A DNA stretch of 35,839 bases from Actinomycetota bacterium (GTDB taxonomy: Bacteria; Actinomycetota; Geothermincolia; Geothermincolales; RBG-13-55-18), in contig JABLXL010000036.1 of assembly GCA_013178005.1 (NCBI GenBank), forward strand, positions 1 through 35,839, read 5' to 3'. Shown one piece after another: positions 897 to 27,367 of this stretch. Both the position numbers and the translations under genes were made by a program. The notes beneath the pieces were generated by a model that made no database searches, had not been told where the DNA came from, and saw nothing but the letters and a program-made list of their open reading frames with translations. The first letter of the stretch is position 1. Each line of letters opens with the position of its first letter.

Positions 897-1046
897 TGGG
901 TGAAGGGGGGCATGTGCTTGTTACACGATGAGTCCATCCATATTCCTTGAGCGGCGAATGGTCCGCCTGGCAGGTACGTATCTCTCTTCTAGCTTGTCTT
1001 GAAGGCTACATGACGGGCAATGCTCGCCGGCCAAAGGAGGTGTAGG

Positions 1047-6743: not shown

Positions 6744-7124
6744 CTCCTGTTGCGGCGTCGCCGCCCGTTCGCGTTCGGGGTCGTGTCTTCACTTTTCACT
6801 TCCGAGGAGACGACGCGCATCCTCCTGGCGAATCGGATCGGGATCGTGTCTCCGCTTTTCCCCTCCGAAGAGACGTTGCAATTCCACCTTGCGAAACGGC
6901 GGAATGTACAAGTGAATACAAGACCGTCATCTCCGTTCCGCTGCTATCCTGTAGAGGATCGTCGCCATATCTTCACTTATACGTTCCGAGGAGACGACGC
7001 GCATCAGCCCGGCGAAACGGCGGAATATACAAGTGAAGGCATGACCCTCTTCTCCGTTCCGAATGGACAAGCGAGGGCATGACCCTCTTCTTTGTTCCTG
7101 CTCAGCAAAAGGACCACTCTTAAC
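6744..7124. mobile_element. Cluster of palindromic (REP/MITE-like) repeats
   Basis: The interval is filled with related palindromic units. One unit (about 6779-6927) has outer arms CTTCACTTTTCACTTCCG and CGGAATGTACAAGTGAA, with a second imperfect unit nested inside. A compact unit (about 6969-7038) has arms CTTCACTTATACGTTCCG and CGGAATATACAAGTGAAG, 18 bp with about three mismatches. Both contain AGGAGACGACGCGCATC next to the left arm and GCGAA-x-CGGCGGAAT at the right. A half unit (about 7061-7110) repeats GCATGACCCTCTTC. No transposase is encoded, so these look like non-autonomous elements moved in trans, as REP sequences are by RAYT enzymes. That origin is inference. Confidence 0.65.
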
Positions 7125-7147
7125 TCAAGATTCGGAACCTGACCCCT
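7125..7147 (-). repeat. Second copy of the gene-end repeat
   Basis: Read on the minus strand, GGGTCAGGTTCCGAATCTTGA encodes GSGSES-stop, matching the plus-strand copy at 3357-3379 in sequence and frame. It borders the palindromic repeat cluster at 6744-7124. Confidence 0.7.
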
Positions 7148-8780
7148 TCTGCCTGGCGATCTCCTCCTCGCGCAGGGCGCGGCGCAGGATCTTGCCCACC
7201 ATGGTCTTGGGCAGCTCGGGGCGGAACTCCACCATCTTGGGTGCCTTGTAGGGGGCCAGGCGCTCGCGGCAGAAGGAGATGATCTCCTCCTCGGTGCACT
7301 CCTCGCCCTCCTTGAGCACGATGTAAGCCTTCACCGTCTCGCCGCGGTACTCGTCGGGGATGCCCACCGTCACCGCTTCCTGCACCTTGGGGTGCTCGTA
7401 GAGGACCTCGTCCACCTCGCGCGGGTAGATGTTGAAACCGCCGGCGATGATCATGTCCTTCTTGCGGTCCACGATGTAGAAGTAGCCGTCCTCGTCCATG
7501 GTGCCGATATCCCCGGTGAAAAGCCAGCCGTCCCGCAGGGTATCCGCAGTCTCCTCTGGCTTCTCCCAGTAGCCCTTCATCACCTGGGGCCCGCGGATGA
7601 TCAGCTCGCCGGGCTCGTTTATCCCCAGCTCCTGTGTCCCCGTCTCCACGTCCACGATCTTAGCCTCGGTGTCCGGGAAGGGGATGCCGATGGAGCCGAC
7701 CTTACGCATGCCCATGATGGGGTTGGAGTGGGTGACCGGTGAGGCCTCCGAGAGGCCGTAGCCCTCGCAGAAGATGCCCCCGGAGATGCGGCTGAACTGC
7801 TTGATCACCTCCACGGGGATGGGGGCGGACCCGGAGTTGCACAGCCGGAGCTTGTCCACGCCGTAGTTCAGCGCCTCGGGGTGGCTGAGGATGGCCACGT
7901 AGAGGGTGGGCACTCCGGGGAAGAAGTTGGGGCGGTACTTCTGGATGGCCTGCAGCATCATGTTGATCTCGAACTGGGGGATGAGGATCATGGCGGCGGC
8001 GTTGGCGATGGCGGTGTTCATGCCCACCGTCTGTCCGTAGGAATGGAAGAAGGGGATGACGTCCAGGTAGATGTCCTTGCCGCGCTCGGTGAACTCCTTC
8101 GCCCACATGGAGCACTGCATGGCGTTGGCCAGGAGGTTGCGGTGGGTGAGCATGACCCCCTTGGGCAGGCCGGTGGTGCCGCCGGTGTACTGCAGGGCGG
8201 CGAGGTCGTTCTCGGGGTCTATCTCCACCTCGGACACCTCCGGCTCGGCGTCGGCGATGACCTCCTTGAGGTAATAGGTGGAGGGGTCCTTCTCCACGTT
8301 GGGGTTGACCGGCGTCTCCATGTAGTCGGTGATGCTGGAGGCGATGATCCTCTTCAGGGGGGATTTCTCCCTGACCGCCTGGATGCGCGCGTCGAAGAGG
8401 TCGAGGTAGATGAGGGTCTCCGAGCCCGAGTCGTTGAACTCGTACTCCAGCTCCCGCTCCACGTGCAGGGGGCTTATGTTGACCACCGTCGCCCCCGCCT
8501 CAAGCGCCCCGTAGTAGGAGATGATGAACTGGGGGCTGTTGGGGAGCATGATGGCCACGCGGTCACCCTTCTCCACCCCCATCCCGCGCAGGGCGGTGGC
8601 CAGGCGCCGCACCTGGTCCCGGATCTGCCCATAGGTGAGCTGCTGGTCGAAGAAGATGGTGGCCACGTTCTCGTCGTACTTGACGCAGGTGAGTTCCAGC
8701 AAATGGAAGAGCGGTATGTTGGGGTAGCGTATGGTCTCGGGAACGAAGTAGTCGTAGTTCTTGAGCCAGATCTTTTCCAT
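7125..8780 (-). CDS. Long-chain/medium-chain fatty acid-CoA ligase (AMP-forming)
   Basis: 551 residues from ATG 8780, where AGGGAGG lies just upstream; an in-frame start 27 codons earlier has no ribosome-binding site. This is an ANL-superfamily enzyme that activates a carboxylic acid to acyl-AMP and then acyl-CoA. Motifs in order: P-loop YTGGTTGLPKGV (198-209), FFHSYGQTVGM, GYGLSEASPV (adenine-binding region), GWLFTGDIGTMDEDGYFYIVDRKKDMIIAGGFNIYP (hinge region), and PKTMVGKILRR with catalytic Lys530. Length and motifs match FadD-like ligases; the acid cannot be read from sequence. The final GSGSES plus stop come from a repeat shared with the unrelated gene ending at 3377. It points away from a second ligase gene at 9309. 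Confidence 0.93.
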   Translation of the reverse strand: MEKIWLKNYDYFVPETIRYPNIPLFHLLELTCVKYDENVATIFFDQQLTYGQIRDQVRRLATALRGMGVEKGDRVAIMLPNSPQFIISYYGALEAGATVVNISPLHVERELEYEFNDSGSETLIYLDLFDARIQAVREKSPLKRIIASSITDYMETPVNPNVEKDPSTYYLKEVIADAEPEVSEVEIDPENDLAALQYTGGTTGLPKGVMLTHRNLLANAMQCSMWAKEFTERGKDIYLDVIPFFHSYGQTVGMNTAIANAAAMILIPQFEINMMLQAIQKYRPNFFPGVPTLYVAILSHPEALNYGVDKLRLCNSGSAPIPVEVIKQFSRISGGIFCEGYGLSEASPVTHSNPIMGMRKVGSIGIPFPDTEAKIVDVETGTQELGINEPGELIIRGPQVMKGYWEKPEETADTLRDGWLFTGDIGTMDEDGYFYIVDRKKDMIIAGGFNIYPREVDEVLYEHPKVQEAVTVGIPDEYRGETVKAYIVLKEGEECTEEEIISFCRERLAPYKAPKMVEFRPELPKTMVGKILRRALREEEIARQKGSGSES

Positions 8781-9308
8781 GTCGTACCTCCCTTTCGCCT
8801 TCGCGGCGCGCCCCGTATCATAACGCAGAAGGAGGAGGAGGACGCGCAGCCCCGCAGTCATCCCCAGCCGGACTTATTAATCCTTATTTTCAAGGCTTGC
8901 TCCGTGATGCGTCAACCTGACATGCGGGATATCTCTTTCCATCACCGAGAGACTCGCGTTCCCTGGAGGCGAAGGCGCGAAGCGATGGGCGTGAGCGCCA
9001 GCATACAAGCGGTCTTGAACTACGGCACCGGTGTCCCCCGGGAGAACTCCAAGCCCGGTTCGGGTTGGGAACAGGAGGGAAGAAGTCCCGGGAGAAGATC
9101 ACGTACGCGGCTCCATCGGGCGGGTTCGTTGGGCAACATCCTATCAAACCCTGCTAATCCCGGGATGAAAGCCGTTTTCGTGGCAATACCGGGACTTGAC
9201 GCGCGAGACATGGTGAAAGCGCCCCTGATGGTGGGTTATAATCTTGCCGCTGGGCTGTTTTTATGAAGCCGGCACGGCGGCCGGCAAACCACCAGGGAGG
9301 GAGAGGGG
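8781..9308. other. Divergent intergenic region between two acyl-CoA ligase genes
   Basis: These 528 bases separate two divergently transcribed ligases. No gene is supported. TATAAT at 9237-9242 is the best -10 candidate for the plus-strand ligase, and ATCATA at 8817-8822 reads TATGAT on the minus strand, 37 bases before the other start. Neither has a good -35 at standard spacing. A shared activator or repressor site would be expected here, but I could not identify one. Confidence 0.45.
9237..9242 (+). promoter_or_regulatory. Candidate -10 element of the 9309 ligase gene
   Basis: A perfect TATAAT lies 66 bases before ATG 9309. The bases 17 upstream (9214-9219, TGAAAG) match the -35 consensus only weakly; a better TTGACG at 9196-9201 is too far away (35 bases). 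Confidence 0.35.
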
Positions 9309-11180: not shown

Positions 11181-11395
11181 GAACCCGGGTCGTGTCTTGA
11201 CTTTTTTGTTCCGAGTCCACGACGGGTGTTTGTCTTACGCTACGGCGGAATGAAAAAGTAAAGACCCCACGTGCGGGTATGAACCCGGGTCGTGTCTTGA
11301 CTTTTTTGTTCCGAGTCCACGACGGGTGTTTGTCTTACGCTACGGCGGAATGAAAAAGGTAAAGACATGTCCCCACCTCCGGGTATATAACCCAG
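11181..11395 (+). mobile_element. Tandem pair of palindromic repeats, 100-bp period
   Basis: Two copies begin with GAACCCGGGTCGTGTCTTGA at 11181 and 11281 and are identical for about 78 bases. Each has an imperfect inverted repeat, GTCTTGACTTTTTTGTTCCG facing CGGAATGAAAAAGTAAAGAC, around a central GGTGTTTGTCTTACG. An inverted copy closes the window (35762-35839). The arms also resemble those of the repeats at 6744-7124. No coding sequence is present. They look like REP/MITE-type elements sitting between the convergent ligase and dehydrogenase genes. Confidence 0.75.
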
Positions 11396-11412: not shown

Positions 11413-12630
11413 TCAGGGGTAGGAGTGGAAGCCGCGGCCGCTCTTGCGCCCCAGCAGGCCCGCCGCCGTCATGCGCCGCAGCAGTGGAGGGGGATAGAAC
11501 TTGGGGTCCCCGGTTTCCCCGTACAGCCGCTCGGCCTCGCGCTGTATCTCGTCCAGGCCGAAGCCATCGGCCATCTCCAGCTGGCCCAGGGGGAGGTTGA
11601 ATCCTAACCGGGTAGCCTTGTCCACGTCCTCCGCCGTGGCCACCCCCGCCTCCACCACCCGCACCGCCTCCAGGATGCCTGGCATGAGAAAACGCTGCAG
11701 CAGGGCCGCGGATCGCCCGGCTCCTCCGTCGGGGCTCTCCCCGCTCCGCGATGCTGTTATGTAACCTTCCCGCTTGCCGCTGGAATAATCGTAGAACCCG
11801 CGGCCGCTCTTGCGCCCTAGAAGGCCCGCGGCCACCATGCGGCGCATAAGGGGAGGGGGGAGGAACTTGGGGTCGCGGGTATCCTCGTAGATGGCCATGG
11901 CGGCGTTGAAGGAGACGTCCAGGCCGGCGTTGTCCATGATCTGCAAGGGGCCCACCCCGGCCTCGAAGCCCCCCGTGGCGCGGTCGATCTCCTCCGGAGT
12001 CGCCAGCCCCTCGTCCACCATGCGCGCGGCCTCGATGGAGGAGGGGATGTTCACGCGGTTGGCCACGAAGCCGGCGTGGTCCCGGTTGACGAGCACGGTT
12101 TCCTTTCCCAGGCTGCGCGCCCAGTTATCGGCGGCGGCCATGGTCTCGTCCGAGGTGAGCAGGCCCCTTATTATCTCCACCAGGCGCATGAGGGGCACGG
12201 GGCCGAAGAAGTGAATGCCCACCACCCTCTCCGGATGCGAGGTGGTGGCGGCGATGGAGGAGATGGGGATGGCAGAGGTGTTGGTCCCCAGGATGGCATG
12301 GGGCTGGCATACGCGGTCCAGGGCGCGGAAGACCTCCTCCTTGAGGGAGATCCGCTCCGGCACCGCCTCGACCACGATATCCGCGCCCGAGGCTTGATCT
12401 AAGCTCGTGGTGACGTCGATGAGCCCAAGGGCACGCGAGGCTTGGCCTTCGTCCACCTTTCCCTTGGACGCGAGCTTCTCCAGCGATGCGCGGATGTTAT
12501 CCATCGCCGAACGCAGGCATTCCTCGCTCACGTCGCACAGGGTTACCCGGTAGCCCGCCATCGCCGAGACCTGCGCTATGCCGTGTCCCATGAATCCCGC
12601 TCCCACCACGAAGACGTTCTCTATGGTCAT
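11413..12630 (-). CDS. 3-hydroxyacyl-CoA dehydrogenase with duplicated C-terminal domain
   Basis: 405 residues from ATG 12630, preceded by GGGGGGA. It oxidises (S)-3-hydroxyacyl-CoA to 3-ketoacyl-CoA with NAD+, in beta-oxidation or the reverse direction. The NAD-binding fold begins FVVGAGFMGHGIAQ (8-20). NTSAIPISSI holds the conserved Ser119, HFFGPVPLMRLVEII the catalytic His140 and Glu152 (the usual HFFNP has Gly for Asn), and GFVANRV the conserved Asn191. The first C-terminal domain ends DPKFLPPPLMRRMVAAGLLGRKSGRGFYDY (residues 253-282). After a 25-residue linker a second ends DPKFYPPPLLRRMTAAGLLGRKSGRGFHSY (375-404). Single-domain enzymes are about 285 residues, so this is an internal duplication as in FadB/PaaH-type two-domain forms. 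Confidence 0.93.
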   Translation of the reverse strand: MTIENVFVVGAGFMGHGIAQVSAMAGYRVTLCDVSEECLRSAMDNIRASLEKLASKGKVDEGQASRALGLIDVTTSLDQASGADIVVEAVPERISLKEEVFRALDRVCQPHAILGTNTSAIPISSIAATTSHPERVVGIHFFGPVPLMRLVEIIRGLLTSDETMAAADNWARSLGKETVLVNRDHAGFVANRVNIPSSIEAARMVDEGLATPEEIDRATGGFEAGVGPLQIMDNAGLDVSFNAAMAIYEDTRDPKFLPPPLMRRMVAAGLLGRKSGRGFYDYSSGKREGYITASRSGESPDGGAGRSAALLQRFLMPGILEAVRVVEAGVATAEDVDKATRLGFNLPLGQLEMADGFGLDEIQREAERLYGETGDPKFYPPPLLRRMTAAGLLGRKSGRGFHSYP

Positions 12631-13985: not shown

Positions 13986-14248
13986 AAATAACCGTTAGTT
14001 TAAGCTCCGGGTGCGGGGTTGAAAACAAGAGGCGAAGCGCATTGCCCGTATTTTGCGGCGAAGAGCCCTTTCTTAAGCAGAGCTAGGAAAAATTCAAGAT
14101 ACGACCCCAGAGGAAAGTTAAATAACCGTTAGTTTAAGCTCCGGGTGCGGGGTTGAAAACAAGAGGCGAAGCGCATTGCCCGTATTTTGCGGCGAAGAGC
14201 CCTTTCTTAAGCAGAGCTAGGAAAAATTCAAGATACGACCCCAGAGGA
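13986..14248 (+). repeat. Two identical 129-bp direct repeats (134-bp period)
   Basis: Copies at 13986-14114 and 14120-14248 appear identical by eye, separated by five bases. Each begins AAATAACCGTTAGTTTAAGC and ends TTCAAGATACGACCCCAGAGGA. The end matches, inverted, the GGGTCGTATCTT/GGTCGTGTCTTGA ends of the palindromic repeats at 11181 and 35762. Perfect identity means a recent duplication. No gene lies inside. Confidence 0.85.
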
Positions 14249-14305: not shown

Positions 14306-14809
14306 TTACTTCACGATCTCGAAATACGCGACGTCATGGATGCTACCGGTGCGGTTCTCAGACCACACGGCGCGCATGCGCATCCCCACCTCCAGCTCCT
14401 TCTCGTCATAGACGTTGCAGAAGTGCATCATGCGGGTGTTGGCCCCATCAAGGGTCACCCAGATGGAGGTGAAGGGCACCTGCTTCATGCCGCCGTTGTT
14501 TGCGTCTATGTAGGGGAAGCGCACGATGGTGAAGCCCTCGAGGGTGCCCTCGGGCCCGACCTCGACCCACTCGTTCATCTCCACGTAGCACTTGCCGCAG
14601 GTCTGGCGCGGTGGCATATAGACCCAGCCGCATTCCGGGCACTTCACGCCCATGAAGCGCTTGTTGTCCCGCAGCTCTGCCAGGAACTTGCTCCAGTAGT
14701 ACCCGAGATGCCAGTGGAAGTCGTATTCCAGGTGGCCGGACTCGTGGGTGAGGAGCTCATAGCCCTCGGGGGTGTGGGTGCGCTTGCGCTTGTCCTCGTA
14801 AAGTCCCAT
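14306..14809 (-). CDS. DUF35 Zn-ribbon/OB-fold protein, partner of thiolase-like protein
   Basis: 167 residues from ATG 14809, chosen because AGGAGG lies eight bases upstream; the in-frame GTG 14818 is part of the AGGAGGTGAG ribosome-binding region itself. N-terminal helices precede a rubredoxin-like zinc knuckle CPECGWVYMPPRQTCGKC (Cys57, 60, 71, 74). An OB-fold follows (GTLEGFTIVRFPYID..., TRMMHFCNV, VGMRMRAVW). DUF35/ChsH2-type proteins bind thiolase-fold partners and shape the acyl-CoA site, as in Ltp2-ChsH2 aldolases and archaeal thiolase complexes. It is last of four genes in a mirror-like operon (DUF35 - thiolase - thiolase - DUF35) and most likely pairs with the thiolase-like protein 15 bases upstream. 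Confidence 0.9.
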   Translation of the reverse strand: MGLYEDKRKRTHTPEGYELLTHESGHLEYDFHWHLGYYWSKFLAELRDNKRFMGVKCPECGWVYMPPRQTCGKCYVEMNEWVEVGPEGTLEGFTIVRFPYIDANNGGMKQVPFTSIWVTLDGANTRMMHFCNVYDEKELEVGMRMRAVWSENRTGSIHDVAYFEIVK

Positions 14810-14824
14810 TGCTCTCACCTCCTC

Positions 14825-15979
14825 CTATGGCAGGTCCGCGCCCAGGATCATGACGTCCGACCACGAGCAGCCGCCGAACCCGGTGCACAGGGCTTTCTTC
14901 GCGCCCTCAACCTGCCGCTCTCCGGCCCTTCCCATGATCTGCCACGCGCCCTCCCCGATGCGGATAAGGGCGGTGGCGCCGATGGGGTTGGTGGAGATAA
15001 CCCCTCCGGAGGGGTTGATGGGCAGTTCCCCGTCCATCTCGAAGGTGCCCTTGCGGATGAGGGCGGGCGCGCCGCCGTGCTCGCAGAACCACAGCGAGTC
15101 CATCCACTTCACCCCGCAGGTGGAGGCGGGGAGGTACAGCTCCGCCACATCGAACTCCTTGAGCGGGTTGGTGATGCCCGCCAGCTTGTACGCCGCCGCC
15201 GAGGCGCGCTCCAGGGTGGGCATGAACTTCCACTCCAGGTCGCCGAAGTGGGTGTAGTCGTGGCGCACCACCGACGCGTGCACCCAGGCCGGCCGGGGGC
15301 AGAGCTTCTTAGCCTTCTCCTCGCAGGCGAAGATCACCGCACAGGAGCCGTCCGAGCGCGGGCACATGTCCAGGAACTTGATAGGGTAGGAGAGCATGGG
15401 GGAGTTGAGCACGTCCTCCACCGTGACCTCCTGGCGCGAGTGCGCGTAGGGGTTCCTCAGCGCGTTGTTGCGGTCGCGGGCGGCCACCATGGCGGCGTCC
15501 TCCTCCGTGGCCCCGAAGGCCTTCATGTACATGGAATATTCCGTGGCCAGGGGGCCTATGGCTCCGGCGAAGGGGTCCCTCTCCAGCGTCGGGTTGGCGC
15601 AGGTGGAGATGGCCGCCTGGGTGTCGGATTCCGAGTTCTTCTCCCATCCCACCGCCATGACCACGTCGAAGAGGCCGCTGGCAACATGGTAATAACCGCA
15701 CGCGCCCACCGTGGTTCCGGTGGTTCCACCCGTGGTGACCTTGAATACTGGCTTCATGCAGGCCCCCAGCCCATCCACAGCCCACATGTCCACGTAGTTG
15801 ATGTTCTCGAAGTGGTCCATGTTGCCGACGACGATGGCGTCTATGTCCTTGATGGTGAGCTGCGCGTCATCCAGGGCTCGGGAAACGGCCTCGGCGATGA
15901 GTTCCGTCCCCGAGGCATCGAGGCGCTTGGCGGCGTGGTGGGTCTGGCCTACTCCGATGATGCCTACTCTTTTGCCCAT
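14825..15979 (-). CDS. Thiolase-fold protein without nucleophilic Cys (SCP2-thiolase/Ltp2-like), A
   Basis: 384 residues, start ATG 15979 (GGAGGTGACGTGAA upstream). The thiolase fold is complete: VGIIGVGQT, GLFDVVMAVGWEKN, LPINPSGGVI, GAWQIMGRAGERQVEGAKKAL. The active site is altered. Where thiolases carry the acyl-accepting Cys, this has VTTGGTTGTTVG (81-92). The usual EVHDAF motif reads ELYLPAS (Tyr282 for His), and GHPxGA reads TNPIGA (331-335). A Cys remains near the C-terminal catalytic position (Cys365 or 371). Loss of the nucleophile with Tyr in the HDAF position is as in Ltp2-type aldolases, which cleave a side-chain beta-hydroxyacyl-CoA and need a DUF35 partner. A retro-aldolase is therefore favoured over a thiolase; a non-catalytic subunit is possible. 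Confidence 0.85.
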   Translation of the reverse strand: MGKRVGIIGVGQTHHAAKRLDASGTELIAEAVSRALDDAQLTIKDIDAIVVGNMDHFENINYVDMWAVDGLGACMKPVFKVTTGGTTGTTVGACGYYHVASGLFDVVMAVGWEKNSESDTQAAISTCANPTLERDPFAGAIGPLATEYSMYMKAFGATEEDAAMVAARDRNNALRNPYAHSRQEVTVEDVLNSPMLSYPIKFLDMCPRSDGSCAVIFACEEKAKKLCPRPAWVHASVVRHDYTHFGDLEWKFMPTLERASAAAYKLAGITNPLKEFDVAELYLPASTCGVKWMDSLWFCEHGGAPALIRKGTFEMDGELPINPSGGVISTNPIGATALIRIGEGAWQIMGRAGERQVEGAKKALCTGFGGCSWSDVMILGADLP

Positions 15980-15993
15980 TTCACGTCACCTCC

Positions 15994-17136
15994 TTATTTC
16001 CCCAGTACCCAGACGCAGTGCGACTGCCCGCACATGCCGTTGACGCCGTGGACAAGAGCGGTCTCCGCCCCATCGAGCTGGCGTTCGCCCGCCTCGCCGC
16101 GCAGTTGCAGCACCGCCTCGGCCATGGCGTACAGGCCTGCCGACTGCACGGGGTGGCCGGATAGGCGCCCGCCGGAGACGTTCACGGGGAACCTGCCGCC
16201 GGCGTCGAACCATCCGCGTTCCAGGTACTCGCACCCCTTGCCGTCGTCGCAGATTCCCAAGCCCTCGAGCCACAGGGGCTCCATGTAGGAAAAGGCGTCA
16301 TAGACCTCTGCGAAGTCGATCTCGTTGAGGGGGTCGGAGATACCCGCCATATCGTAGGCACGCTTGGCGGCGGCTTTAAGGGCGCGCGTATCCGCGAGGT
16401 CGCGGTCCCCCGGGCGGAAGGCGTCGGCGCAATGCCCCACGCCCTTCATCCATACCCTTTTCTTGTTGGTGGTGAGCTTCTTGGCCTGCCTCTCCGCCGC
16501 CAGGATGAGGGTGCAGGCGCCGTCGGTTACCGGGGAGCAGTCCAGGACCTTTAGAGGGTCGGCCACCTTGCGCGAGTTCATCACGTCGTCCACGGTGATG
16601 TCCATGGGCAGCAGCGCGATGGGGTTGCGCTTGGCGTTGCCATGGTTCTTCACCGATACCAGGGCGAACTGCTCCTCGAGAAGCCCGTACTTGCTCATGT
16701 AGCGGCGCGCCTGCAGGGCGGCGGAAGACACCGCGTCCAGGCCCAGCTTGCGCTCCACCAGGGGGTCGAAGGCGCAGTTGGTGATGCCGTTCATGTTGCT
16801 CTCAGTGCCCTTGTGGTGGGCGCACACGATGCTCACCCCGAACGCGCCGGAGAGGATGCGCATCATGCCGTAAAGGGCGCCGAAGGTCCCGTCTCCCTCC
16901 ACGGTGGTGATGTCCTTGCCGAAGGCTCCCGAGGCGTCGGATATGGCCATGCTGGAGATGGTGCGTCCGTCCCAGAAGTCACTGGACACCGAGACCACGT
17001 TGTCGACCTCGTCTCGGGTTATTCCCGCGTCCTCCAGGGCCTTGGTGGTGGCCTCGAAGACCATCTCCGCGAAGGTCAGGGGGCTGTTCTGGGCGTACTT
17101 GGTGAATCCCACGCCGATTATCGCGACTTTTTCCAT
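15994..17136 (-). CDS. Thiolase-fold protein without nucleophilic Cys (SCP2-thiolase/Ltp2-like), B
   Basis: 380 residues from ATG 17136; an in-frame GTG three codons earlier lies inside the GGGGTGA ribosome-binding region. The fold runs VAIIGVGFTKY, GVSIVCAHHKGTESN, FPVNVSGGRLSGHPVQSAG, VLQLRGEAGERQLDGAETALVHGVNGMCG. The nucleophile region reads TTVEGDGTFGALYG (77-90), with no Cys. The HDAF motif is EVYDAFSYME (Tyr279), which matches the Ltp2-like YDxF pattern. GHP (327-329) and a C-terminal Cys369 are kept, unlike paralogue A. It follows DUF35-B by 18 bases and precedes paralogue A by 14, so all four proteins are probably made together. It may form a heteromeric aldolase with DUF35-B or with A. 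Confidence 0.85.
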   Translation of the reverse strand: MEKVAIIGVGFTKYAQNSPLTFAEMVFEATTKALEDAGITRDEVDNVVSVSSDFWDGRTISSMAISDASGAFGKDITTVEGDGTFGALYGMMRILSGAFGVSIVCAHHKGTESNMNGITNCAFDPLVERKLGLDAVSSAALQARRYMSKYGLLEEQFALVSVKNHGNAKRNPIALLPMDITVDDVMNSRKVADPLKVLDCSPVTDGACTLILAAERQAKKLTTNKKRVWMKGVGHCADAFRPGDRDLADTRALKAAAKRAYDMAGISDPLNEIDFAEVYDAFSYMEPLWLEGLGICDDGKGCEYLERGWFDAGGRFPVNVSGGRLSGHPVQSAGLYAMAEAVLQLRGEAGERQLDGAETALVHGVNGMCGQSHCVWVLGK

Positions 17137-17154
17137 GCCTATCACCCCGCTTCC

Positions 17155-17619
17155 CTAGCCTATGGGACGGAAATGCTTGATGTCGAGGATATTGCCCTCG
17201 CGCTCATCCTCGAGCACCGCCTCCACCCTCATGCCCACCTTTACGTCCTCCGGCGCCACCTCGTCGATGAAGTGGACCATGCCGGTGTCGGCGCCGTCCA
17301 TCTTGATCACGCCGTAGACGAAGGGGGCCTTGCGGGGGTGCATGGACGGCTCCTCGTAGCGCACGACGGTGTAGGTCTCCACCGTGCCGGTGCCGGGTAG
17401 CTCCACCCAGTCATGGGGCTCCTCGTAGCAGTTAATGCATTTGATCTTGGGTGGCACGAAGGTCGTCCCGCACTTGGGGCAGCGGTTGGCCCAGATCTTG
17501 CCGTTGTCCCGCAGTTCGCAGTAGAAGCGGCTCAAGGTGCTTCCCACCGTCCATGAATAGGGGACGCTGATCTTGCCCTCGTGGACCATTATCTCCACGT
17601 CGTTCTTCCAGTCAGACAA
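17155..17619 (-). CDS. DUF35 Zn-ribbon/OB-fold protein, B
   Basis: 154 residues if started at TTG 17619, which lies eight bases after AGGGAGG; a GTG at 17628 overlaps that site and would be too close to it. The arrangement matches the other DUF35 gene. Helical N-terminus (SWTVGSTLSRFYCELRDNGKIW), then CPKCGTTFVPPKIKCINC (Cys47, 50, 61, 64) for zinc, then the OB-fold (GTVETYTVVRYEEPS, FVYGVIKMDGADTGMVHF, VKVGMRVEAVLED). It is expected to bind the neighbouring thiolase-fold protein, as ChsH2 binds Ltp2. It is the first gene of the operon; a promoter candidate lies about 480 bases upstream. Confidence 0.88.
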   Translation of the reverse strand: MSDWKNDVEIMVHEGKISVPYSWTVGSTLSRFYCELRDNGKIWANRCPKCGTTFVPPKIKCINCYEEPHDWVELPGTGTVETYTVVRYEEPSMHPRKAPFVYGVIKMDGADTGMVHFIDEVAPEDVKVGMRVEAVLEDEREGNILDIKHFRPIG

Positions 17620-18080
17620 CTGCCTCACCTCCCTTTACCTTGCCCTGCTGCCGTTAAGTGGTGCGTTTGCTGGAGCCTCCATCCATCACCTCCTCGCGGG
17701 GGCCGAATACCCTCCAGGACCGTTATAAGGAGCATCCGGTCGGGGATGCGTCTTACGCCCTACTTAGTACATGACCAGCTTGGCTTCACGTCCCGGTCGG
17801 CAATGTTCAGGAGTCCAGGAATAGGATAGCAACCCTGGAACACCTGAAGTCGAGGATCCTCACGGGCACTTTGCCGATCTCCAATTCATCCCCTGGTCCA
17901 GATCTACACCGTCTTCAACCTGGCCCCTACTGGTGGGAAAGTATGTTCCGCTTCCCGTCAGGGGCTAAAAGATTTCCCGTGGCTTGAGGGCGCGCCCTCC
18001 ACCGCGCCCGGTGCTGGATTCGCGAACCCAAGGCCCACTGGCCTCAAACCTCCCTACCCTGAGCCGGCGCAAAAGGTTTG

Positions 18081-18237: not shown

Positions 18238-20103
18238 TCACAGGTTAAGCCTGTCGGCGACGTAGCCGAGGCCGTATTTCTCCAGCGTTTCGCGGGTGGG
18301 CATGCCGTCGGGGGTCATGCCGCGGTACTCGTAGAACTCGCGCAGCATGGTCTCCATGTCGGGCACCGATCCGGCGATGCCCCCGTCCTCCACTGGGGTC
18401 ATGATCCGCTGGCCTATGCGGTCGTCGGCGCCGGTGGCTCCCCAGATATGGCCCAGGCAGCGCTGCAGGAACCATACCCGCGCGCCCGCCTCCATCAACT
18501 TCTCCACGTCCCATCCGTATCCAGCCACGGCGTTGAAGAGCTCCGCCCACTGGGTCACGGTGTAGGCGGTTCCCGGGAACTCGCACCAGCAAGCGGAGTT
18601 CATGATGCACCCCAGGTCGGCGGTCAAGGCCACCGCTTCCGCCCGGTTCTCGGTGGAGAACTTGGGGTAGTTCTTGTCCAGCCCGATCTCGGGGTACTCG
18701 ATGGCCCCCCATTCCAGGAGGAAGGTCATGTTGGAGACGTGGCAGGCGCCGCGGATGGAGACGGCGTAGGCCAGGCCGTCGCCCCAGTCACAGCGGGGAT
18801 CATGCATGGGTGCCTCAAGCCCCTTGGAGTCGGTGAGGTAGGCCTCCGCACCTCCTCCCACCTCAGCGGCGGCGGCCCTTGAGCCCTTGGCGAGGAGCGT
18901 CGCCAGCTTGCCCTGCCGGGCCACCACGCTGGGGAGGAGCTCGATGACCGTGTCCACGTCGCCCCATTCCAGCTTCAGGCCGTCGTAGTCCTCGGGCTTG
19001 AGGATGCCCGCCTCGTAGCAATCCATGGCCCACGCGAAGGTAGCCCCGAGGGTTATGGTGTCCATGCCCGCGCGGTTGCAGAAATCGTTGATCTTGCACA
19101 GGGCGGCCAGGTTATCGTTCATGATCATGGTCCCGAAGGCCGCCTGGGTCTCGTATTCCGGCCCGGGGCCCGGCCTGTCCATGGCGTAAGGGCCTTCCTT
19201 TACCTCCACCACCGGCTTGCAGCGCACGGCGCAGCCACGACAGCTCGCGTGGTCCACGATGAAGTTGTCGGCGAGGGCGATGCCGGAGAGCTTCTCCGCC
19301 CCCTCCTCCCACAGGCCCCGACCCCAGTTGCGTGTGGGGACGTCGCCTTCGAACATCTTGGCCTCCATGTTGGCGCCGGTGCCGAAGGCGGAGAGGGCGC
19401 CGCAGAAGATGTTGTCCTTGATCATCTCGCGGTGCTCCTCCTGCATGGCCTTCACCTTCTCCGGGTCGGCGTACTCGGGCTTCAAGCCGCCCTCGGCGAC
19501 GATGGCCTTGAGGTTCTTCGCGCCCATCACTGCGCCCATTCCCGAGCGTCCGAAGTGGTGGCCGTAGTCGTTGGTTATGGAGGCGAAGGGGATGAGGTTC
19601 TCGCCCGCCGGACCGATAGCCAGCACCTTTGCCCCCTTGCTGTAGCGCTCCTTCAATGTGTCGGTGGTCTCGTAGATATCCATGCCCCAAAGGTCGTCGG
19701 CCGGCAGGAGGTCGGCGGTTCCCTCCCCCAGCAGGAGGAAGACGGGACCCTGCGCTTTCCCCTTGAGGATCACCGCGTCGTAACCGCACCTCTTGAGCTC
19801 GGGGCCGAAGTTGCCCCCGCACGAGGCCTGGCCCCAGATGCCGGTCAGGGGAGAGCGCGCCCCTACCGAGAGGCGGCTCGAGCCGGAGAACCCGATGCCG
19901 GTCAAAGGGCCCGTGGCGAAGATGAGCAGGTTGTCGGGATCCAGGGCCCCCGCCTCCAGGTTACCGCGGTCGAAGAGCAGCTTCGCCGCGAGACCCGTCC
20001 CCCCGATGTAGTCGCGGTAGGTCTCCTCGGGAAGCTCTATCTCCTGGGTGGACCCATCCGAGAGGTCCACCTCCAGGACCTTACCCATGTTTCCGAAAGC
20101 CAT
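18238..20103 (-). CDS. aor: Tungsten-type aldehyde:ferredoxin oxidoreductase
   Basis: 621 residues from ATG 20103, eight bases after GGGGAG; ATG 20109 and GTG 20112 are too close to that site. AOR-family enzymes oxidise aldehydes to acids (or reduce acids) with ferredoxin, using a tungsto-bis-pterin and one [4Fe-4S]. The N-terminal beta domain (GKVLEVDLSDGSTQEIELPEE...YIGGTGLAAKLL) is clear. SSRLSVGARSPLTGIWGQASCGGNFGPELKRCGYDAV and ITNDYGHHFGRSGMGAVMGAKNLKAI are pterin-site segments. The cluster motif CRGCAVRC gives Cys288, 291 and 295, with a fourth Cys likely among 499-507. Length fits bacterial/archaeal AOR. It is the last gene of a cluster with an Fe-alcohol dehydrogenase and two SCP2-like proteins. 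The substrate aldehyde is unknown. Confidence 0.93.
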   Translation of the reverse strand: MAFGNMGKVLEVDLSDGSTQEIELPEETYRDYIGGTGLAAKLLFDRGNLEAGALDPDNLLIFATGPLTGIGFSGSSRLSVGARSPLTGIWGQASCGGNFGPELKRCGYDAVILKGKAQGPVFLLLGEGTADLLPADDLWGMDIYETTDTLKERYSKGAKVLAIGPAGENLIPFASITNDYGHHFGRSGMGAVMGAKNLKAIVAEGGLKPEYADPEKVKAMQEEHREMIKDNIFCGALSAFGTGANMEAKMFEGDVPTRNWGRGLWEEGAEKLSGIALADNFIVDHASCRGCAVRCKPVVEVKEGPYAMDRPGPGPEYETQAAFGTMIMNDNLAALCKINDFCNRAGMDTITLGATFAWAMDCYEAGILKPEDYDGLKLEWGDVDTVIELLPSVVARQGKLATLLAKGSRAAAAEVGGGAEAYLTDSKGLEAPMHDPRCDWGDGLAYAVSIRGACHVSNMTFLLEWGAIEYPEIGLDKNYPKFSTENRAEAVALTADLGCIMNSACWCEFPGTAYTVTQWAELFNAVAGYGWDVEKLMEAGARVWFLQRCLGHIWGATGADDRIGQRIMTPVEDGGIAGSVPDMETMLREFYEYRGMTPDGMPTRETLEKYGLGYVADRLNL

Positions 20104-20122
20104 GCGCATCACTCCCCGCCGC

Positions 20123-20539
20123 TCAGTTAAGGGACATGATCTTGGTGAGCCTGGTAAGGGCTCCCAGGCGGGTGAACATGCCCTTTATCCTCAGCTCCTT
20201 CCTGAGGAGCTTCTTCACCACCGCCATGCCCGTCTCGTCGAAATACCAGGGCATGCCGTACTTGATGTTGATGTTGGCCAGGTCGAGCAGGGTGGCGGCG
20301 TCGGTCTCGATGGAGATATCCGGGCTTCCTTCTTTGCCCCCGTACACGGTGAGGGTGCCGCGGTTGAAGTCCATGGTGATCTCCGTCTCGGCGTCCTTGG
20401 CGTTGATGTAGACACGCGCCTTGAGCTTGTTGAATTCCTTAAGCTTTTCCGGTTTCTCCAGGTTGGCCTTGAGCATGTCCGAGAGCATGACCGCCATGGC
20501 CACCTCGTCGGCCCCTGGGGCCAGTTTCACGTCCGCCAT
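20123..20539 (-). CDS. SCP2-like (sterol carrier) domain protein, small
   Basis: 138 residues from ATG 20539 with an excellent AAAGGAGG site. The sequence fits the SCP2 fold: a helical start (EVAMAVMLSDMLKANLEKPEKL), strands KARVYINAKDAETEITMDFNRGTLTVYGG, then ISIETDAATLLDLANINIKYG and a C-terminal LRIKGMFTRLGALTRLTKIMSL matching the 'G(k)l(k)i(k)G...l.rl' end of the family. SCP2 domains hold lipids, sterols or acyl chains in a hydrophobic tunnel. There is no signal peptide. It lies 19 bases before the AOR start, so it may present a hydrophobic aldehyde or acyl-CoA to the cluster's oxidoreductases. Confidence 0.8.
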   Translation of the reverse strand: MADVKLAPGADEVAMAVMLSDMLKANLEKPEKLKEFNKLKARVYINAKDAETEITMDFNRGTLTVYGGKEGSPDISIETDAATLLDLANINIKYGMPWYFDETGMAVVKKLLRKELRIKGMFTRLGALTRLTKIMSLN

Positions 20540-20600: not shown

Positions 20601-21764
20601 TCAGAACGCCTTCTTGTAAACCTCCATCACTTGCTCCGCCTCGAAGACCATCTTGGGGTTGTAAACTATGGAGCCGTCGCAGAGGGCCATGTCCGAGGCC
20701 TCGGCGAGCCCTTCCTCCTCCACGCCCACTTCGCGCAGGGACTGGGGCATGCCGATCTTCTTGGTCAACTCGAAGACGGCGTCCACCGCCGCTCCAGCGG
20801 CCTCCTCGTCGCTCATGCCCTTCTCCTTCACCCCCATGGCCTCGGCCACCAGGGCGTAACGGTCGGCGCATTCGTCCATGTTGTACATCATCACGTGGGG
20901 GAGGAGGATGGAGTTGGCGACGCCGTGGGGCACCTTGTAGAGGGCGCCCACGCAGTGGGCCATGGCATGCACCAGGCCGACCTGCGCGTTGGAGAAGGCG
21001 ATGCCGGCCATGGTCGCGGCGATCTGCTGCTGGCCGCGGGCCACCAGGTCAGAGCCGTTTTCCACGCATATGGGCAGGTACTGCATGATTAGGCGGATGG
21101 CGCCGTAGGCCAGGGTGTCCGAGATGGGCTCGGCCTGCAGGGCGTGGATGGCCTCGATGGCGTGGGTAAGGGCGTCCATCCCCGTCATGGCGGTGATGCG
21201 CGGCGGCATGGTGGCGGTCATCTCGGGGTCGAGTATGGCGGTGTTGGGCATTAGGTAGTCGTCGCCGTAGAGCAACTTCTGGTTCTTCTCCCAGTCCTTG
21301 ATCACGAAGGCATAGGTGACCTCGCTCCCGGTGCCGGCGGTGGTGGGGATGACCACGTGGGGGGTGATGGGGTGGGTGAGCATCTGGAAGCCCTGGTAAT
21401 CCTGGAGGTTGCCTCCCTCGGAGACGATGATGGCCATGCCCTTAGCGGTGTCGATGACGCTGCCACCGCCCACGCTCACTATGCAGTCGGCGCCTTTCTC
21501 GCGCGCTATCTCGGCGGCCTCGTTGACGATGTGGTACCCCGAGTCCTGGGGCACGCCGTCGAAGGTGCCGACGTGCCGGCTGCCCAGCGCCTTCTCCACC
21601 TTTTCCACGATCCCCGCCTCCACCAGGCCCTTGTCGGTGACCACGAAGGCACGGGAGCACTTGAGGTGGTCCACCTCCGCTCCCAGGTCCTTCACGGCGC
21701 CGATCCCGAAAACGAGCCTGGTGTAGTTCTTGTAGATGAAGGACAGATCCTTGTCGTAAGCCAT
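20601..21764 (-). CDS. Iron-containing alcohol dehydrogenase (group III)
   Basis: 387 residues from ATG 21764, eight bases after GGAGG; the GTG at 21773 falls within the GGAGGTGAA site. It interconverts an alcohol and an aldehyde or ketone with NAD(P)H. SVGGGSVIDTAKGMA (97-111) is the dinucleotide-binding motif and IPTTAGTGSEVT a further family signature. Metal ligands are Asp197 and His201 (GMDALTHAIEA), His266 (VHAMAHCVG) and His280 (KVPHGVAN). All are present and the length is normal. Placed between two SCP2-like genes and upstream of AOR, it probably handles the same hydrophobic aldehyde. Confidence 0.94.
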   Translation of the reverse strand: MAYDKDLSFIYKNYTRLVFGIGAVKDLGAEVDHLKCSRAFVVTDKGLVEAGIVEKVEKALGSRHVGTFDGVPQDSGYHIVNEAAEIAREKGADCIVSVGGGSVIDTAKGMAIIVSEGGNLQDYQGFQMLTHPITPHVVIPTTAGTGSEVTYAFVIKDWEKNQKLLYGDDYLMPNTAILDPEMTATMPPRITAMTGMDALTHAIEAIHALQAEPISDTLAYGAIRLIMQYLPICVENGSDLVARGQQQIAATMAGIAFSNAQVGLVHAMAHCVGALYKVPHGVANSILLPHVMMYNMDECADRYALVAEAMGVKEKGMSDEEAAGAAVDAVFELTKKIGMPQSLREVGVEEEGLAEASDMALCDGSIVYNPKMVFEAEQVMEVYKKAF

Positions 21765-21863
21765 GCGTTTCACCTCCGGTAAAGTTGCCGGGGACGGTCT
21801 TCCCCGGGTCGTCTGGCTTCGGTCTGGCCAGAAAATCGGACGCCGGCGTCCGTATCGTCAAGA

Positions 21864-21925: not shown

Positions 21926-22489
21926 CTAGATCCCCAGCTCCTCCTCCGCCCGCTTGAGCAGCGCGCGCAGGTCTTCCTTCCCCGCGTCGTCGAGTTCGTC
22001 GGGGAAGCGCGGGTTGGTGGAGGCCGAGAGGTCCACCAGGCGGGAAGCCGCCTTCACCGCGCGCACGATGGTGGGAAGGTCGCCCTTGAGCTTCAACTTG
22101 CCCTGCATCATGCCCTTGACGGTGTCCAGCTCCTTGGCCATGACCGCCTTCCAGCGCTCGTATTCCCCGGTTATCACGTAGTCGCCGGCCTCGCCCACCT
22201 CGGCGGGGACGATGCGCACGTAGTTGCAGTCGCCGTGCCAGAGGTCCATGAACATGTAGAGGTCCTTGTCCAGCCCTATCTCCGGCTTGGCGAGGATCTT
22301 GATGACCACCGAGCCCTCCCAGGTCTTGGCGGCCTCCTTGTACTCGGCGTCGTTCTGGATCAATTCCTCGTACTGCTTCACCCACTCCGGGGTCCCCATG
22401 ATGTAGGGCGGGGACTGGCTCTCCATCCTCTCCTTTACGATGTTGTTGTAGGTCTCAACCCACTCATCGGTGCCATACGGAATTGCCAT
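21926..22489 (-). CDS. SCP2-like domain protein, larger
   Basis: 187 residues from ATG 22489 (GAGGAGGGA upstream). Two repeated helical segments near the start resemble each other (GTDEWVETYNNIVKER and GTPEWVKQYEELIQND). The SCP2-type core follows: GSVVIKILAKPEIGLDKDLYMFMDLWHGDC, YVITGEYERWKAVMAKELDTVKGMMQGKLKLKGDLPTIVRAVKAASRLVDL. The latter is the classic 'x-g-x-a-x-m-x-GklklkGd' region. The C-terminal 35 residues are charged helix. The likely role is to bind a lipid or acyl intermediate. It is first in the AOR cluster, just downstream of a promoter candidate, and only distantly like the smaller SCP2 protein. Confidence 0.82.
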   Translation of the reverse strand: MAIPYGTDEWVETYNNIVKERMESQSPPYIMGTPEWVKQYEELIQNDAEYKEAAKTWEGSVVIKILAKPEIGLDKDLYMFMDLWHGDCNYVRIVPAEVGEAGDYVITGEYERWKAVMAKELDTVKGMMQGKLKLKGDLPTIVRAVKAASRLVDLSASTNPRFPDELDDAGKEDLRALLKRAEEELGI

Positions 22490-25401: not shown

Positions 25402-26043
25402 TTATCCCAGTAGAGAACGAAGAAGGGCGGGGGCCCCGGCGGCGTTCTCCCCGTAGCCGTCGGCGCCCATGTCCGCGGCCACGGCCTGGGAGAGCGGGGC
25501 GCCGCCCACTATGATCAGGGGCGGGTCGGCCATGGCGCGCGCCAGCTCCACGGTGCGGCGCATGTTGGGCAGGGTGGTAGTCATCATGGTGGAGAGCGCC
25601 AGCACCCGGGCTCCGTTCTCCCTGACCTGCTCCAGGAACCTCTGCGGCGGAACGTCGTATCCCAGGTCGATCACGCGGTGGCCATCCGCCTCCAGCATCG
25701 CCGCCACCAGGTTCTTGCCTATCTCGTGCACGTCTCCCTCCACCACGCCCAGCACCACGGTTTCCGATGAGCCCGGGGCGCCGGATTCCCCCAGGTGCGG
25801 GAGCGCCATCCGTATACCGGCGTGCATGGCCTCGGCGGCCACGAGCAGCTCGGGCAGGAAGTACTCGTGTCGCTCGTAGAGCTCACCGGCCTCCTTCATC
25901 CCCGGACAGAGTCCCTCCTGGATGATCTCCCGCGCCGGGATCCCCGCGGCCAGGGCCTCCTCGCATCGCGACAATACCTCTTCCTCCATTCCCTCCCGCA
26001 CCGCAGCGGCGATAACCTCAAGCAGTTCGTTCCCCTTTGCCAT
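25402..26043 (-). CDS. Corrinoid (B12-binding) protein, second methyltransferase module
   Basis: 213 residues from ATG 26043, spaced correctly from GAGGGTG; ATG 26049 touches that site. The helical cap domain (LCPGMKEAGELYERHEYFLPELLVAAEAM) is followed by the cobalamin domain with GVVEGDVHEIGKNLV (Asp104-x-His106-x-x-Gly109), LSTMMTTTLPNM and IIVGGAPLS. All key features of MtaC/MtbC/MttC-type carriers are present. It lies 11 bases downstream of a zinc-site URO-D methyltransferase, the reverse of the order in the first module (3828-5735). Similarity to that module's carrier is clear but not close. Confidence 0.93.
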   Translation of the reverse strand: MAKGNELLEVIAAAVREGMEEEVLSRCEEALAAGIPAREIIQEGLCPGMKEAGELYERHEYFLPELLVAAEAMHAGIRMALPHLGESGAPGSSETVVLGVVEGDVHEIGKNLVAAMLEADGHRVIDLGYDVPPQRFLEQVRENGARVLALSTMMTTTLPNMRRTVELARAMADPPLIIVGGAPLSQAVAADMGADGYGENAAGAPALLRSLLG

Positions 26044-26054
26044 TTGCATCACCC

Positions 26055-27203
26055 TCACTTGATCGGGTATTTTCCGTAGACCTTCGCCGCCCTCACCACC
26101 GCCAGGGCGTTGGCCAGCTCCAGGTTCGGCGGGTACTCGCAGGCCGGCGCCAGGACGTAACCTCCCCCCGGCGCCAGCACCCTGATCTGCTCCCTGGCCA
26201 GTTCCATGATGGCCTTGGGCGACTCCAGCAGGAGGCTCTGGGTCGGGATGAGGCCGGCGATGGCGGTTCGTTCACCATATTTTGCCTTCAGCTCCGCGAG
26301 GTCGGCGCAGTCGTCCGGGACGTCGGCTAGGGATACGATGACCGGCTCCATGTATTCGAGCTGGAGGTCCAGGTAAGGCCTGGTGCCGCAGTTGTGCAGG
26401 GCGACCAGGGCGCCGTTGCGCCTTATCTCGTCCGCTATGCGCCGGGCGTAAACCCCCTCCATCTCCACCCACAGCTCCCTCGACACGCCGGACTGGGAGG
26501 CGAAGAGCGTGTCCAGCATCACCGCGTCCACGCCCGTGTCGCAGAGCGCCCGCGCGTAGTCCACCAGCACCTCGGTGATGACCTCCAGGGCCGCCTTCAC
26601 CTTTTGCGGGTGGCGCGCGCAATCCGCGAAGAGCCTGGGCGCGCCGCGCATCATGTTCAGGACCCCCAAGGGCCCGAACACGAACCCCATCACCGGGTAG
26701 CGGATGCCCGCTTTCTTCGCCAGGATCCGGGCCAGCTTTACGCCCATGCCCATGCGCGGCGATCTGCGAGGATCGAAGGGCTCCAGGCGTTCGTAGTCGT
26801 CCACGGAGGCGATGCGGGGCTTGCGGTAGTCGGGGTAGGCGGTGCTGTAGGGGGGATAGACCATCTCCTGCCCGAAGTCGGCGGCCTCCACCGAGAGGTC
26901 GATGACGGTGTAGAGGACGTCGCCCCCGAGGAGCTCGTTGGCGGCGATGTAGGCCTCGGCCGCCGCCTCGGGGTCGCGCGAGAACCTCTCATAAGATATG
27001 CCGGTGAGGCGCCGCGCCGCCCCGAGCAGGAAATGGGTCACGGGCACTCGGTCCGGCTCCTTGTGGAAGGCTGCGCAGAGCACCCGCTCCAGCGGAAGGA
27101 GCTCCCCTATCCTCCCGTGCGCGTGAAATATGCCCGAGGCGGCGCGCATCATCCCCACGGTAGGCCTGATGAGCTTGCCCCTGAAGCGAGGATACACGGA
27201 CAT
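26055..27203 (-). CDS. URO-D-fold corrinoid methyltransferase with intact zinc site (MtaA/MtbA-like)
   Basis: 382 residues from ATG 27203, with GGGGAGGG just upstream; an open frame extends 51 codons further but has no start signal and unlikely composition. The URO-D fold is clear: PLERVLCAAFHKEPDRVPVTHFLLG, VMGFVFGPLGVLNMMRG, DTGVDAVMLDTLFASQSGVS, VSLADVPDDCADLAELKAKYG, AIMELAREQIRVLAPGGGYVLAPACEYPPN. ALHNCGTRPYLD gives His270 and Cys272, and LAPACEYPP gives Cys355, together the zinc site used in MtaA/MtbA to activate a thiol for methyl transfer. It probably moves a methyl group between a substrate or thiol and the corrinoid protein encoded 11 bases downstream. Substrate unknown. Confidence 0.9.
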   Translation of the reverse strand: MSVYPRFRGKLIRPTVGMMRAASGIFHAHGRIGELLPLERVLCAAFHKEPDRVPVTHFLLGAARRLTGISYERFSRDPEAAAEAYIAANELLGGDVLYTVIDLSVEAADFGQEMVYPPYSTAYPDYRKPRIASVDDYERLEPFDPRRSPRMGMGVKLARILAKKAGIRYPVMGFVFGPLGVLNMMRGAPRLFADCARHPQKVKAALEVITEVLVDYARALCDTGVDAVMLDTLFASQSGVSRELWVEMEGVYARRIADEIRRNGALVALHNCGTRPYLDLQLEYMEPVIVSLADVPDDCADLAELKAKYGERTAIAGLIPTQSLLLESPKAIMELAREQIRVLAPGGGYVLAPACEYPPNLELANALAVVRAAKVYGKYPIK

Positions 27204-27367
27204 GTTTTCCCTCCCCACCCTTGCATTGCCGTGCTGCCGTGCCGCCATGTTAGCACAAGACGGCCAACCTTGTCCTGGTTCTCCTGGCCCCAGGGGAGAG
27301 GCGGTTGGCGAGGCGTCGAAATCGGGCGCGCGCCGCGTGCACGCGGCAGGAGACAAGTATAAAAGCC

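What the first reader, a model, noticed from the sequence alone, without database searches (positions are those of the whole stretch)
14306..17619. Mirror-image DUF35-thiolase-thiolase-DUF35 operon in which both thiolase-fold proteins lack the nucleophilic cysteine
Seen: no Cys at the acyl-acceptor position in either protein (VTTGGTTG in A, TVEGDGTFG in B), and Tyr replaces His in the EVHDAF motif (ELYLPAS; EVYDAFS). Paralogue A also lost the GHP His while B kept it. Known: Ltp2-type proteins with this loss are retro-aldolases that need a ChsH2/DUF35 partner in steroid side-chain breakdown. Inference: this is a paired, possibly heteromeric C-C lyase (or synthase) in an anaerobe, with one subunit more degenerate than the other. 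A four-protein assembly of this sort is not one I recognise.
Basis: partly seen in the sequence, partly recalled or inferred. Interest (0 to 1): 0.72.

Follow-up and report, generated by a model that had tools for sequence, protein, structure and literature searches.

The report
Paired cysteine-less thiolase-fold aldolase operon
Four neighbouring genes in a bacterium of the class Geothermincolia encode two thiolase-shaped proteins that have lost the thiolase cysteine, plus two small zinc-binding partners; they look like a relative of the Ltp3-Ltp4 enzyme with which mycobacteria and rhodococci split branched sterol side chains, here conserved across a whole class outside any sterol gene cluster.

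Summary
The tight minus-strand operon DUF35-B, thiolase B, thiolase A, DUF35-A (14306-17628) encodes two thiolase-fold proteins with no nucleophilic Cys. It is no oddity of one genome: the same four genes in the same order recur across the class Geothermincolia and in two Bacillota MAGs, related sets occur in Cupriavidus, Streptomyces, mycobacteria and haloarchaea, and the window's genome has three further paired loci. A and B fall into two separate, well-supported clades that also hold the proteins at the mycobacterial ltp3 and ltp4 positions, next to a double-DUF35 protein. Ltp3-Ltp4 is already described as a heteromeric aldol-lyase for C24-branched sterols. The window is therefore an Ltp3/Ltp4-type, not an Ltp2-type, set. 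Best reading: an A-B-DUF35x2 retro-aldolase cutting a beta-hydroxyacyl-CoA, with the linked aldehyde:ferredoxin oxidoreductase, Fe-alcohol dehydrogenase and CoA ligases handling the released aldehyde in one family. Chemistry, substrate and stoichiometry are inferred, not shown.

The parts
17155..17628 (-). DUF35-B (zinc ribbon + OB fold, 157 aa), first gene of the quartet; both CxxC pairs intact
   Evidence: ORF and Pfam OB_ChsH2_C 7e-18, zf-ChsH2 1.7e-7; own clade with orthologues
15994..17136 (-). Thiolase-fold protein B (Ltp4-type): no Cys, VEGDGTFG loop with a 3-residue deletion, EVYDAF, GHP; probable degenerate partner subunit
   Evidence: alternative GTG start at 17145
14825..15979 (-). 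Thiolase-fold protein A (Ltp3-type): no Cys (Gly85), Tyr282-x-Pro284, Asn331 in place of the GHP His; probable catalytic subunit
   Evidence: 40% identical to the protein at the mycobacterial ltp3 position
14306..14818 (-). DUF35-A (170 aa), last gene of the quartet; both CxxC pairs intact
   Evidence: own clade with orthologues
18238..20112 (-). Aldehyde:ferredoxin oxidoreductase (AOR), upstream on the same strand, about 610 bp from the quartet
   Evidence: AFOR_N and AFOR_C; linked to the quartet in several genera of the same family
20123..20539 (-). SCP2 lipid-binding-domain protein (138 aa), conserved neighbour
20601..21773 (-). Iron-containing alcohol dehydrogenase, conserved neighbour
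21926..22489 (-). SCP2 lipid-binding-domain protein (187 aa), conserved neighbour
11413..12630 (-). 3-hydroxyacyl-CoA dehydrogenase, conserved downstream neighbour in the family
7125..8861 (-). AMP-forming acyl-CoA ligase (assigned by eye), conserved downstream neighbour in the family

Best explanation
The quartet is an Ltp3/Ltp4-type heteromeric aldol-lyase. A and B form a thiolase-fold dimer and each holds a DUF35 subunit (an A-B counterpart of the alpha-beta-beta-alpha Ltp2-ChsH2 and Sal-Shy complexes). The complex cuts the Calpha-Cbeta bond of a beta-hydroxyacyl-CoA without a covalent acyl-enzyme: the conserved Tyr282 of A takes the proton from the beta-hydroxyl, the acyl-CoA enolate leaves, and an aldehyde or ketone is released with a shorter acyl-CoA. 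B is mainly a structural or substrate-shaping partner. In this family the aldehyde is probably oxidised by the neighbouring AOR (reducing ferredoxin) or reduced by the Fe-ADH, and the acid is re-activated by the neighbouring CoA ligases. Shown here: the gene set, the missing Cys, the residue signatures, clade membership, pairing and context. Inferred: the reaction, the complex, which subunit is catalytic, the substrate (most likely a beta-branched or bulky acyl-CoA that blocks ordinary beta-oxidation) and the fate of the product.
For: Both proteins lack the Cys, and the HDxF His is Tyr, the residue shown to be the catalytic base in TcLtp2 (Tyr294) and CtSal (Tyr302) (PMC12329534). A-type rows: Tyr in 52 of 55 and Asn in 55 of 55 that reach those columns. 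A and B clades are supported at 100/95 and 99/85, contain the proteins at the mycobacterial ltp3 and ltp4 positions, and stand apart from Cys thiolases (100/97). The mycobacterial-type locus L117 has EchA19 and Rv3520c-family neighbours, a double-DUF35 protein, PRK07937 and PRK08313, matching the published order Rv3520c, Rv3521, ltp4 (Rv3522), ltp3 (Rv3523). Ltp3 and Ltp4 are genetically characterised aldol-lyases, described as heteromeric. A and B distances go together across 35 pairs (Mantel r 0.94, 0 of 5000 permutations). AOR, Fe-ADH, SCP2, 3HCDH and CoA ligases are conserved neighbours in several genera of the family, and sets in Bacillota lie among beta-oxidation genes.
Against: Neither A nor B has the second catalytic group known from Ltp2 (Tyr344) or Sal (Cys304): A has Asn and Pro there, so the proton donor is unknown. 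AOR linkage is confined to one family; other families keep the quartet without it. No enoyl-CoA hydratase or acyl-CoA dehydrogenase was recognised beside the window's quartet. Five genomes have an extra solo A gene without adjacent B or DUF35, so A may act in another way too, although all five also carry a full quartet. The Mantel correlation partly reflects shared descent. No experiment on any close homologue was found; Ltp3-Ltp4 itself was found characterised only by genetics.
Confidence: 0.6

Rival explanations
1. The complex runs in the synthetic direction: an alcohol is oxidised by the Fe-ADH to an aldehyde or ketone, which A-B condenses with an acyl-CoA to a beta-hydroxyacyl-CoA that the linked 3-hydroxyacyl-CoA dehydrogenase oxidises.
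For: Fe-ADH and 3HCDH are conserved neighbours; the Bacillota set in L077 is directly followed by a 3HCDH. A 3HCDH is not needed for a retro-aldol step.
Against: Characterised relatives (Ltp2, Sal, Ltp3-Ltp4) all work in degradation; aldol addition of an acyl-CoA enolate is thermodynamically uphill (general knowledge).
Confidence: 0.13
2. The quartet is a non-catalytic or carrier complex (acyl-CoA/lipid binding or a scaffold), like PhlA in the PhlABC acyltransferase, serving another enzyme.
For: DUF35 proteins act as staples in PhlABC and in thiolase/HMG-CoA synthase complexes; PhlA is a thiolase-superfamily subunit without Cys and without a role in acyl transfer. B is variable at every catalytic position.
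Against: A keeps an invariant polar signature (Gly, Tyr-x-Pro, Asn) from Bacillota to mycobacteria, which a mere scaffold would not need; no Cys-containing thiolase partner is in the operon.
Confidence: 0.15
3. It is a Claisen thiolase that uses another residue or a Cys from elsewhere as nucleophile.
For: Thiolase fold; nearest solved sequences are Cys thiolases.
Against: No Cys within four columns of the nucleophile position in any A or B row but one; both catalytic His residues are also replaced in A; A and B lie outside the Cys-thiolase clade.
Confidence: 0.05
4. Both A and B are catalytic with different substrates, and the two DUF35-thiolase pairs work as separate homodimeric aldolases that merely share an operon.
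For: B keeps YDAF plus a GHP His in the window and Tyr in 26 of 48 rows; A also exists alone in five genomes.
Against: B-type Tyr and His are not conserved; A and B are paired nearly everywhere sampled; ltp3 and ltp4 are both essential for one step (title of Wilbrink et al. 2012, cited).
Confidence: 0.07

Closest known systems
Ltp3-Ltp4 with Rv3521 (actinobacterial sterol C24-branched side-chain aldol-lyase)
   Same: Two adjacent Cys-less thiolase-fold proteins of the same A and B clades, beside two DUF35 domains; A is 40% identical to the ltp3-position protein, with Y-x-P and N-P motifs; B is 27% identical to the ltp4-position protein
   Different: DUF35 domains are separate genes here and keep both CxxC pairs (none found in either half of the mycobacterial fusions); B is full length; no sterol cluster; AOR/Fe-ADH neighbours; below the curated NCBIfam cut-offs
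Ltp2-ChsH2(DUF35) and Sal-Shy(DUF35) steroid aldolases
   Same: Thiolase fold, no Cys nucleophile, Tyr base at the HDxF His position, DUF35 partner
   Different: Separate clade; single thiolase subunit; YDHF + Tyr344 or YDCY motifs are absent; DUF35 fused to or partnered with a MaoC hydratase
BbsAB benzoylsuccinyl-CoA thiolase
   Same: Thiolase-fold + DUF35 zinc subunit, anaerobic metabolism
   Different: BbsB keeps Cys, His and GHP and is a Claisen thiolase
PhlABC acyltransferase / archaeal thiolase-HMG-CoA synthase-DUF35 complex
   Same: Two thiolase-superfamily subunits plus DUF35
   Different: The two subunits are of different subfamilies, the thiolase keeps Cys, one DUF35 type only

Membership tests
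Ltp3/Ltp4-type heteromeric aldol-lyase | Two adjacent thiolase-fold paralogues falling in the Ltp3 (A) and Ltp4 (B) clades | tested here: met
   A one side of a branch 100/95, B 99/85, both in 100% of 200 bootstrap trees
Ltp3/Ltp4-type heteromeric aldol-lyase | Two DUF35 domains encoded with the pair | tested here: met
   Two separate DUF35 genes; fused in mycobacteria and Streptomyces
Ltp3/Ltp4-type heteromeric aldol-lyase | Above the curated NCBIfam cut-offs of PRK08313 / PRK07937 | tested here: not met
   374 of 514 bits and 162 of 419 bits; so a relative of the same kind, not an orthologue
Ltp3/Ltp4-type heteromeric aldol-lyase | Retro-aldol cleavage of a beta-hydroxyacyl-CoA by an A-B heteromer | not testable with these tools
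   needs protein work
Ltp2-type aldolase | Membership of the Ltp2 clade | tested here: not met
   Ltp2/Sal form a separate clade 100/99
Ltp2-type aldolase | YDHF motif and second Tyr (Tyr344) | tested here: not met
   A: YLPA + Asn; B: YDAF + His
Sal-type aldolase | YDCY motif with catalytic Cys304 | tested here: not met
   A has Pro, B has Ala at that position
Claisen thiolase (BbsAB, archaeal acetoacetyl-CoA thiolase) | Nucleophilic Cys and GHP His / HDxF His | tested here: not met
   nucleophile Gly in both; HDxF His replaced by Tyr in both
DUF35 (OB_ChsH2_C + zinc ribbon) | Both Pfam domains above cut-off and two CxxC | tested here: met

The most novel reading that the evidence does not exclude
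A class-wide anaerobic chain-shortening route in which a four-subunit A-B-DUF35-DUF35 aldolase with a one-sided Tyr/Asn active site (no second acid as in Ltp2 or Sal) releases an aldehyde that an aldehyde:ferredoxin oxidoreductase turns into acid and reduced ferredoxin, replacing the oxidation and thiolysis steps of beta-oxidation for branched acyl-CoAs.
Probability: 0.28. Interest if true: 0.72.

Novelty: new variant of a known kind. Interest (0 to 1): 0.5.

Why it matters
It extends the Ltp3-Ltp4 kind, known from aerobic sterol-degrading actinobacteria, to a conserved gene set of a whole uncultured class and to Bacillota, Pseudomonadota and haloarchaea. It points to an old A/B duplication with a fixed division of labour. 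The invariant Tyr-x-Pro/Asn signature of A and the free variation of B give a direct, testable prediction for a poorly characterised enzyme, and the AOR linkage suggests how cells without oxygen could recover energy from a retro-aldol aldehyde.

Tried and rejected
Ltp2-type filing: rejected by the tree and by motif tests. 'B is the active subunit with a Tyr-His dyad': considered first because the window's B has YDAF plus GHP; rejected because both vary among B orthologues, the His even within the genus. AOR as an obligatory partner: rejected, since several class members keep the quartet without a close AOR. Structure prediction: A and DUF35-A read as one chain through the in-frame stop gave pLDDT 75, pTM 0.77, thiolase fold; DUF35-B with B gave a poor model (pLDDT 58, pTM 0.63); the alignments were shallow, so neither proves the subunit contact. 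A first mixed alignment misplaced the DUF35-only rows and was dropped. DUF35 tree: DUF35-A and DUF35-B are separate clades, but their match to the N and C halves of the fused protein could not be resolved. Rfam: no RNA family in the window. The literature searches found no paper on a four-subunit A-B-DUF35-DUF35 complex.
Full report
OBSERVATION. Pfam confirms Thiolase_N plus Thiolase_C_1 and the two DUF35 domains. A and B are 34% identical to each other. In an alignment with solved thiolases and with the other thiolases of this genome, the nucleophile position is Gly in both, and B has lost three residues in that loop. The HDxF His is Tyr in both. The GHP His is Asn in A and His in B.

HOW WIDESPREAD. 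Record titles of close relatives name Candidatus Solincola, Geothermincola and Geohydrothermomicrobium, i.e. the class Geothermincolia of the Actinomycetota. A-type proteins 78-98% identical to A occur in most sampled genomes of the class, and DUF35-B, B, A, DUF35-A is kept in the same order in several families. Two Bacillota MAGs carry the same set with A 58% identical, one of them directly between acyl-CoA dehydrogenase, 3-hydroxyacyl-CoA dehydrogenase and crotonase genes. Looser relatives occur on plasmids of Cupriavidus, Streptomyces, Tsukamurella, Rhodococcus and a haloarchaeon. The window's own genome has three more paired loci, on contigs C55, C69 and C29, all Cys-less, while six of its other thiolases keep Cys. 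The C29 pair lies outside the A and B clades.

WHAT IT IS. Sequences from further actinobacteria were fetched with the NCBIfam model PRK07937. In locus L117 the neighbours are an EchA19 equivalog and an Rv3520c-family F420 enzyme, followed by a double-DUF35 protein of 342 aa, PRK07937 (354 aa) and PRK08313 (393 aa). This is the published order Rv3520c, Rv3521, ltp4 (Rv3522), ltp3 (Rv3523). Streptomyces and Tsukamurella plasmid loci have the same layout. A careful maximum-likelihood tree of 73 proteins puts all A-type proteins, with the ltp3-position ones, on one side of a branch (100/95), all B-type, with the ltp4-position ones, on another (99/85), Cys thiolases on a third (100/97) and Ltp2/Sal on a fourth (100/99). 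A is 40% identical to the ltp3-position protein and B 27% to the ltp4-position one. Reviews and papers describe Ltp3 and Ltp4 as aldol-lyases for the C24-branched sterol side chain, one of them as a heteromeric enzyme.

WHICH SUBUNIT WORKS. Over 56 A-type rows the nucleophile column is Gly in all 56; of the 55 rows that reach the other columns, the HDxF His is Tyr in 52, the residue two further on is Pro in 52 and the GHP His is Asn in 55. Over 48 B-type rows the same columns are mixed: Tyr 26, His 10, Thr 5 and others; Asn 29, His 14 and others. The known aldolases give the mechanism by analogy: Tyr294 of Ltp2 and Tyr302 of Sal take the proton from the beta-hydroxyl, and Tyr344 or Cys304 gives one to the enolate (PMC12329534). 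A has the first Tyr but Asn and Pro at the second sites, so its proton donor is open.

PAIRING. A and B tree distances over 35 pairs correlate at r 0.94, with none of 5000 permutations as high; shared descent accounts for part of this. DUF35-A and DUF35-B are likewise two separate clades that include the Bacillota and C55 copies, so all four genes are older than the split of these lineages or moved together. Five genomes have an additional solo A gene (L066, L067, L068, L070, L071); each also carries a full quartet.

CONTEXT. In the window's family the quartet follows a conserved run of Fe-S protein, SCP2, Fe-ADH, SCP2 and AOR, and is followed by CoA ligases and a 3-hydroxyacyl-CoA dehydrogenase. 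G001, of the same genus, lacks both the close A orthologue and the close AOR, though its assembly is incomplete. Other families keep the quartet without the AOR. The aldehyde-handling part of the model is therefore specific to this family.

STRUCTURE. A read through into DUF35-A was predicted with pLDDT 75 and pTM 0.77; the best structural matches are SCP2-type thiolases, and Ltp2 (6ok1), Sal (9myr) and 4u4e are also matched. The B model is poor. No complex could be predicted.

LIMITS. PDB reference sequences were taken from printed HMMER alignments and lack their ends. Reaction, substrate, stoichiometry and life style are inferred. Ltp3 and Ltp4 were identified in L117 by gene order and family models, not by name. 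Some neighbour genes (ligases, corrinoid proteins, crotonase, acyl-CoA dehydrogenases) were named by eye from the sequence.

VERDICT. A real, well-conserved gene set, best described as an Ltp3/Ltp4-type heteromeric aldol-lyase with two separate DUF35 subunits: a new variant of a known kind.

Noticed in passing
window 13986-14248: Perfect tandem duplication of a 134-bp unit just 3' of the quartet; about 36 bp of it (unit positions 89-124) recur in most of the 101 matches found in this genome, with a handful of near full-length copies: a dispersed repeat family, not identified.
   Followed up: partly
window 11181-11366 and 6775-6899: Two further short tandem repeats (100 bp x 1.9 and 63 bp x 2), both with a GTGTCTTGACTTTT / GTGTCTCCACTTTT-like core that may be related to the dispersed repeat.
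   Followed up: no
L066, L067, L068, L070, L071: Extra solo copies of A (78-80% identical) without adjacent B or DUF35, with intact Tyr/Asn signature, each in a genome that also has the full quartet.
   Followed up: partly
window 3828-5735 and 25402-27356: Two pairs that look like a corrinoid protein with a UroD/MtaB-like methyltransferase, suggesting methyl-transfer metabolism (by eye).
   Followed up: no
window 1020-2687 and 30529-32718: Two long secreted-looking proteins with RCC1-like repeats; their genes hold 117-bp and about 310-bp tandem repeats.
   Followed up: no
L129 6343-15775: Simplicispira suum plasmid cluster joins an A/B pair, an Ltp2-like protein, two DUF35 proteins, an MBL-fold hydrolase and an Fe-ADH, partly mirroring the window's neighbourhood.
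   Followed up: partly
4yzo (ST0096, Sulfolobus tokodaii) and 4u4e (Sphaerobacter thermophilus): Solved thiolase-like proteins that also lack the Cys; 4u4e has a YDSF motif and groups with Sal.
   Followed up: no
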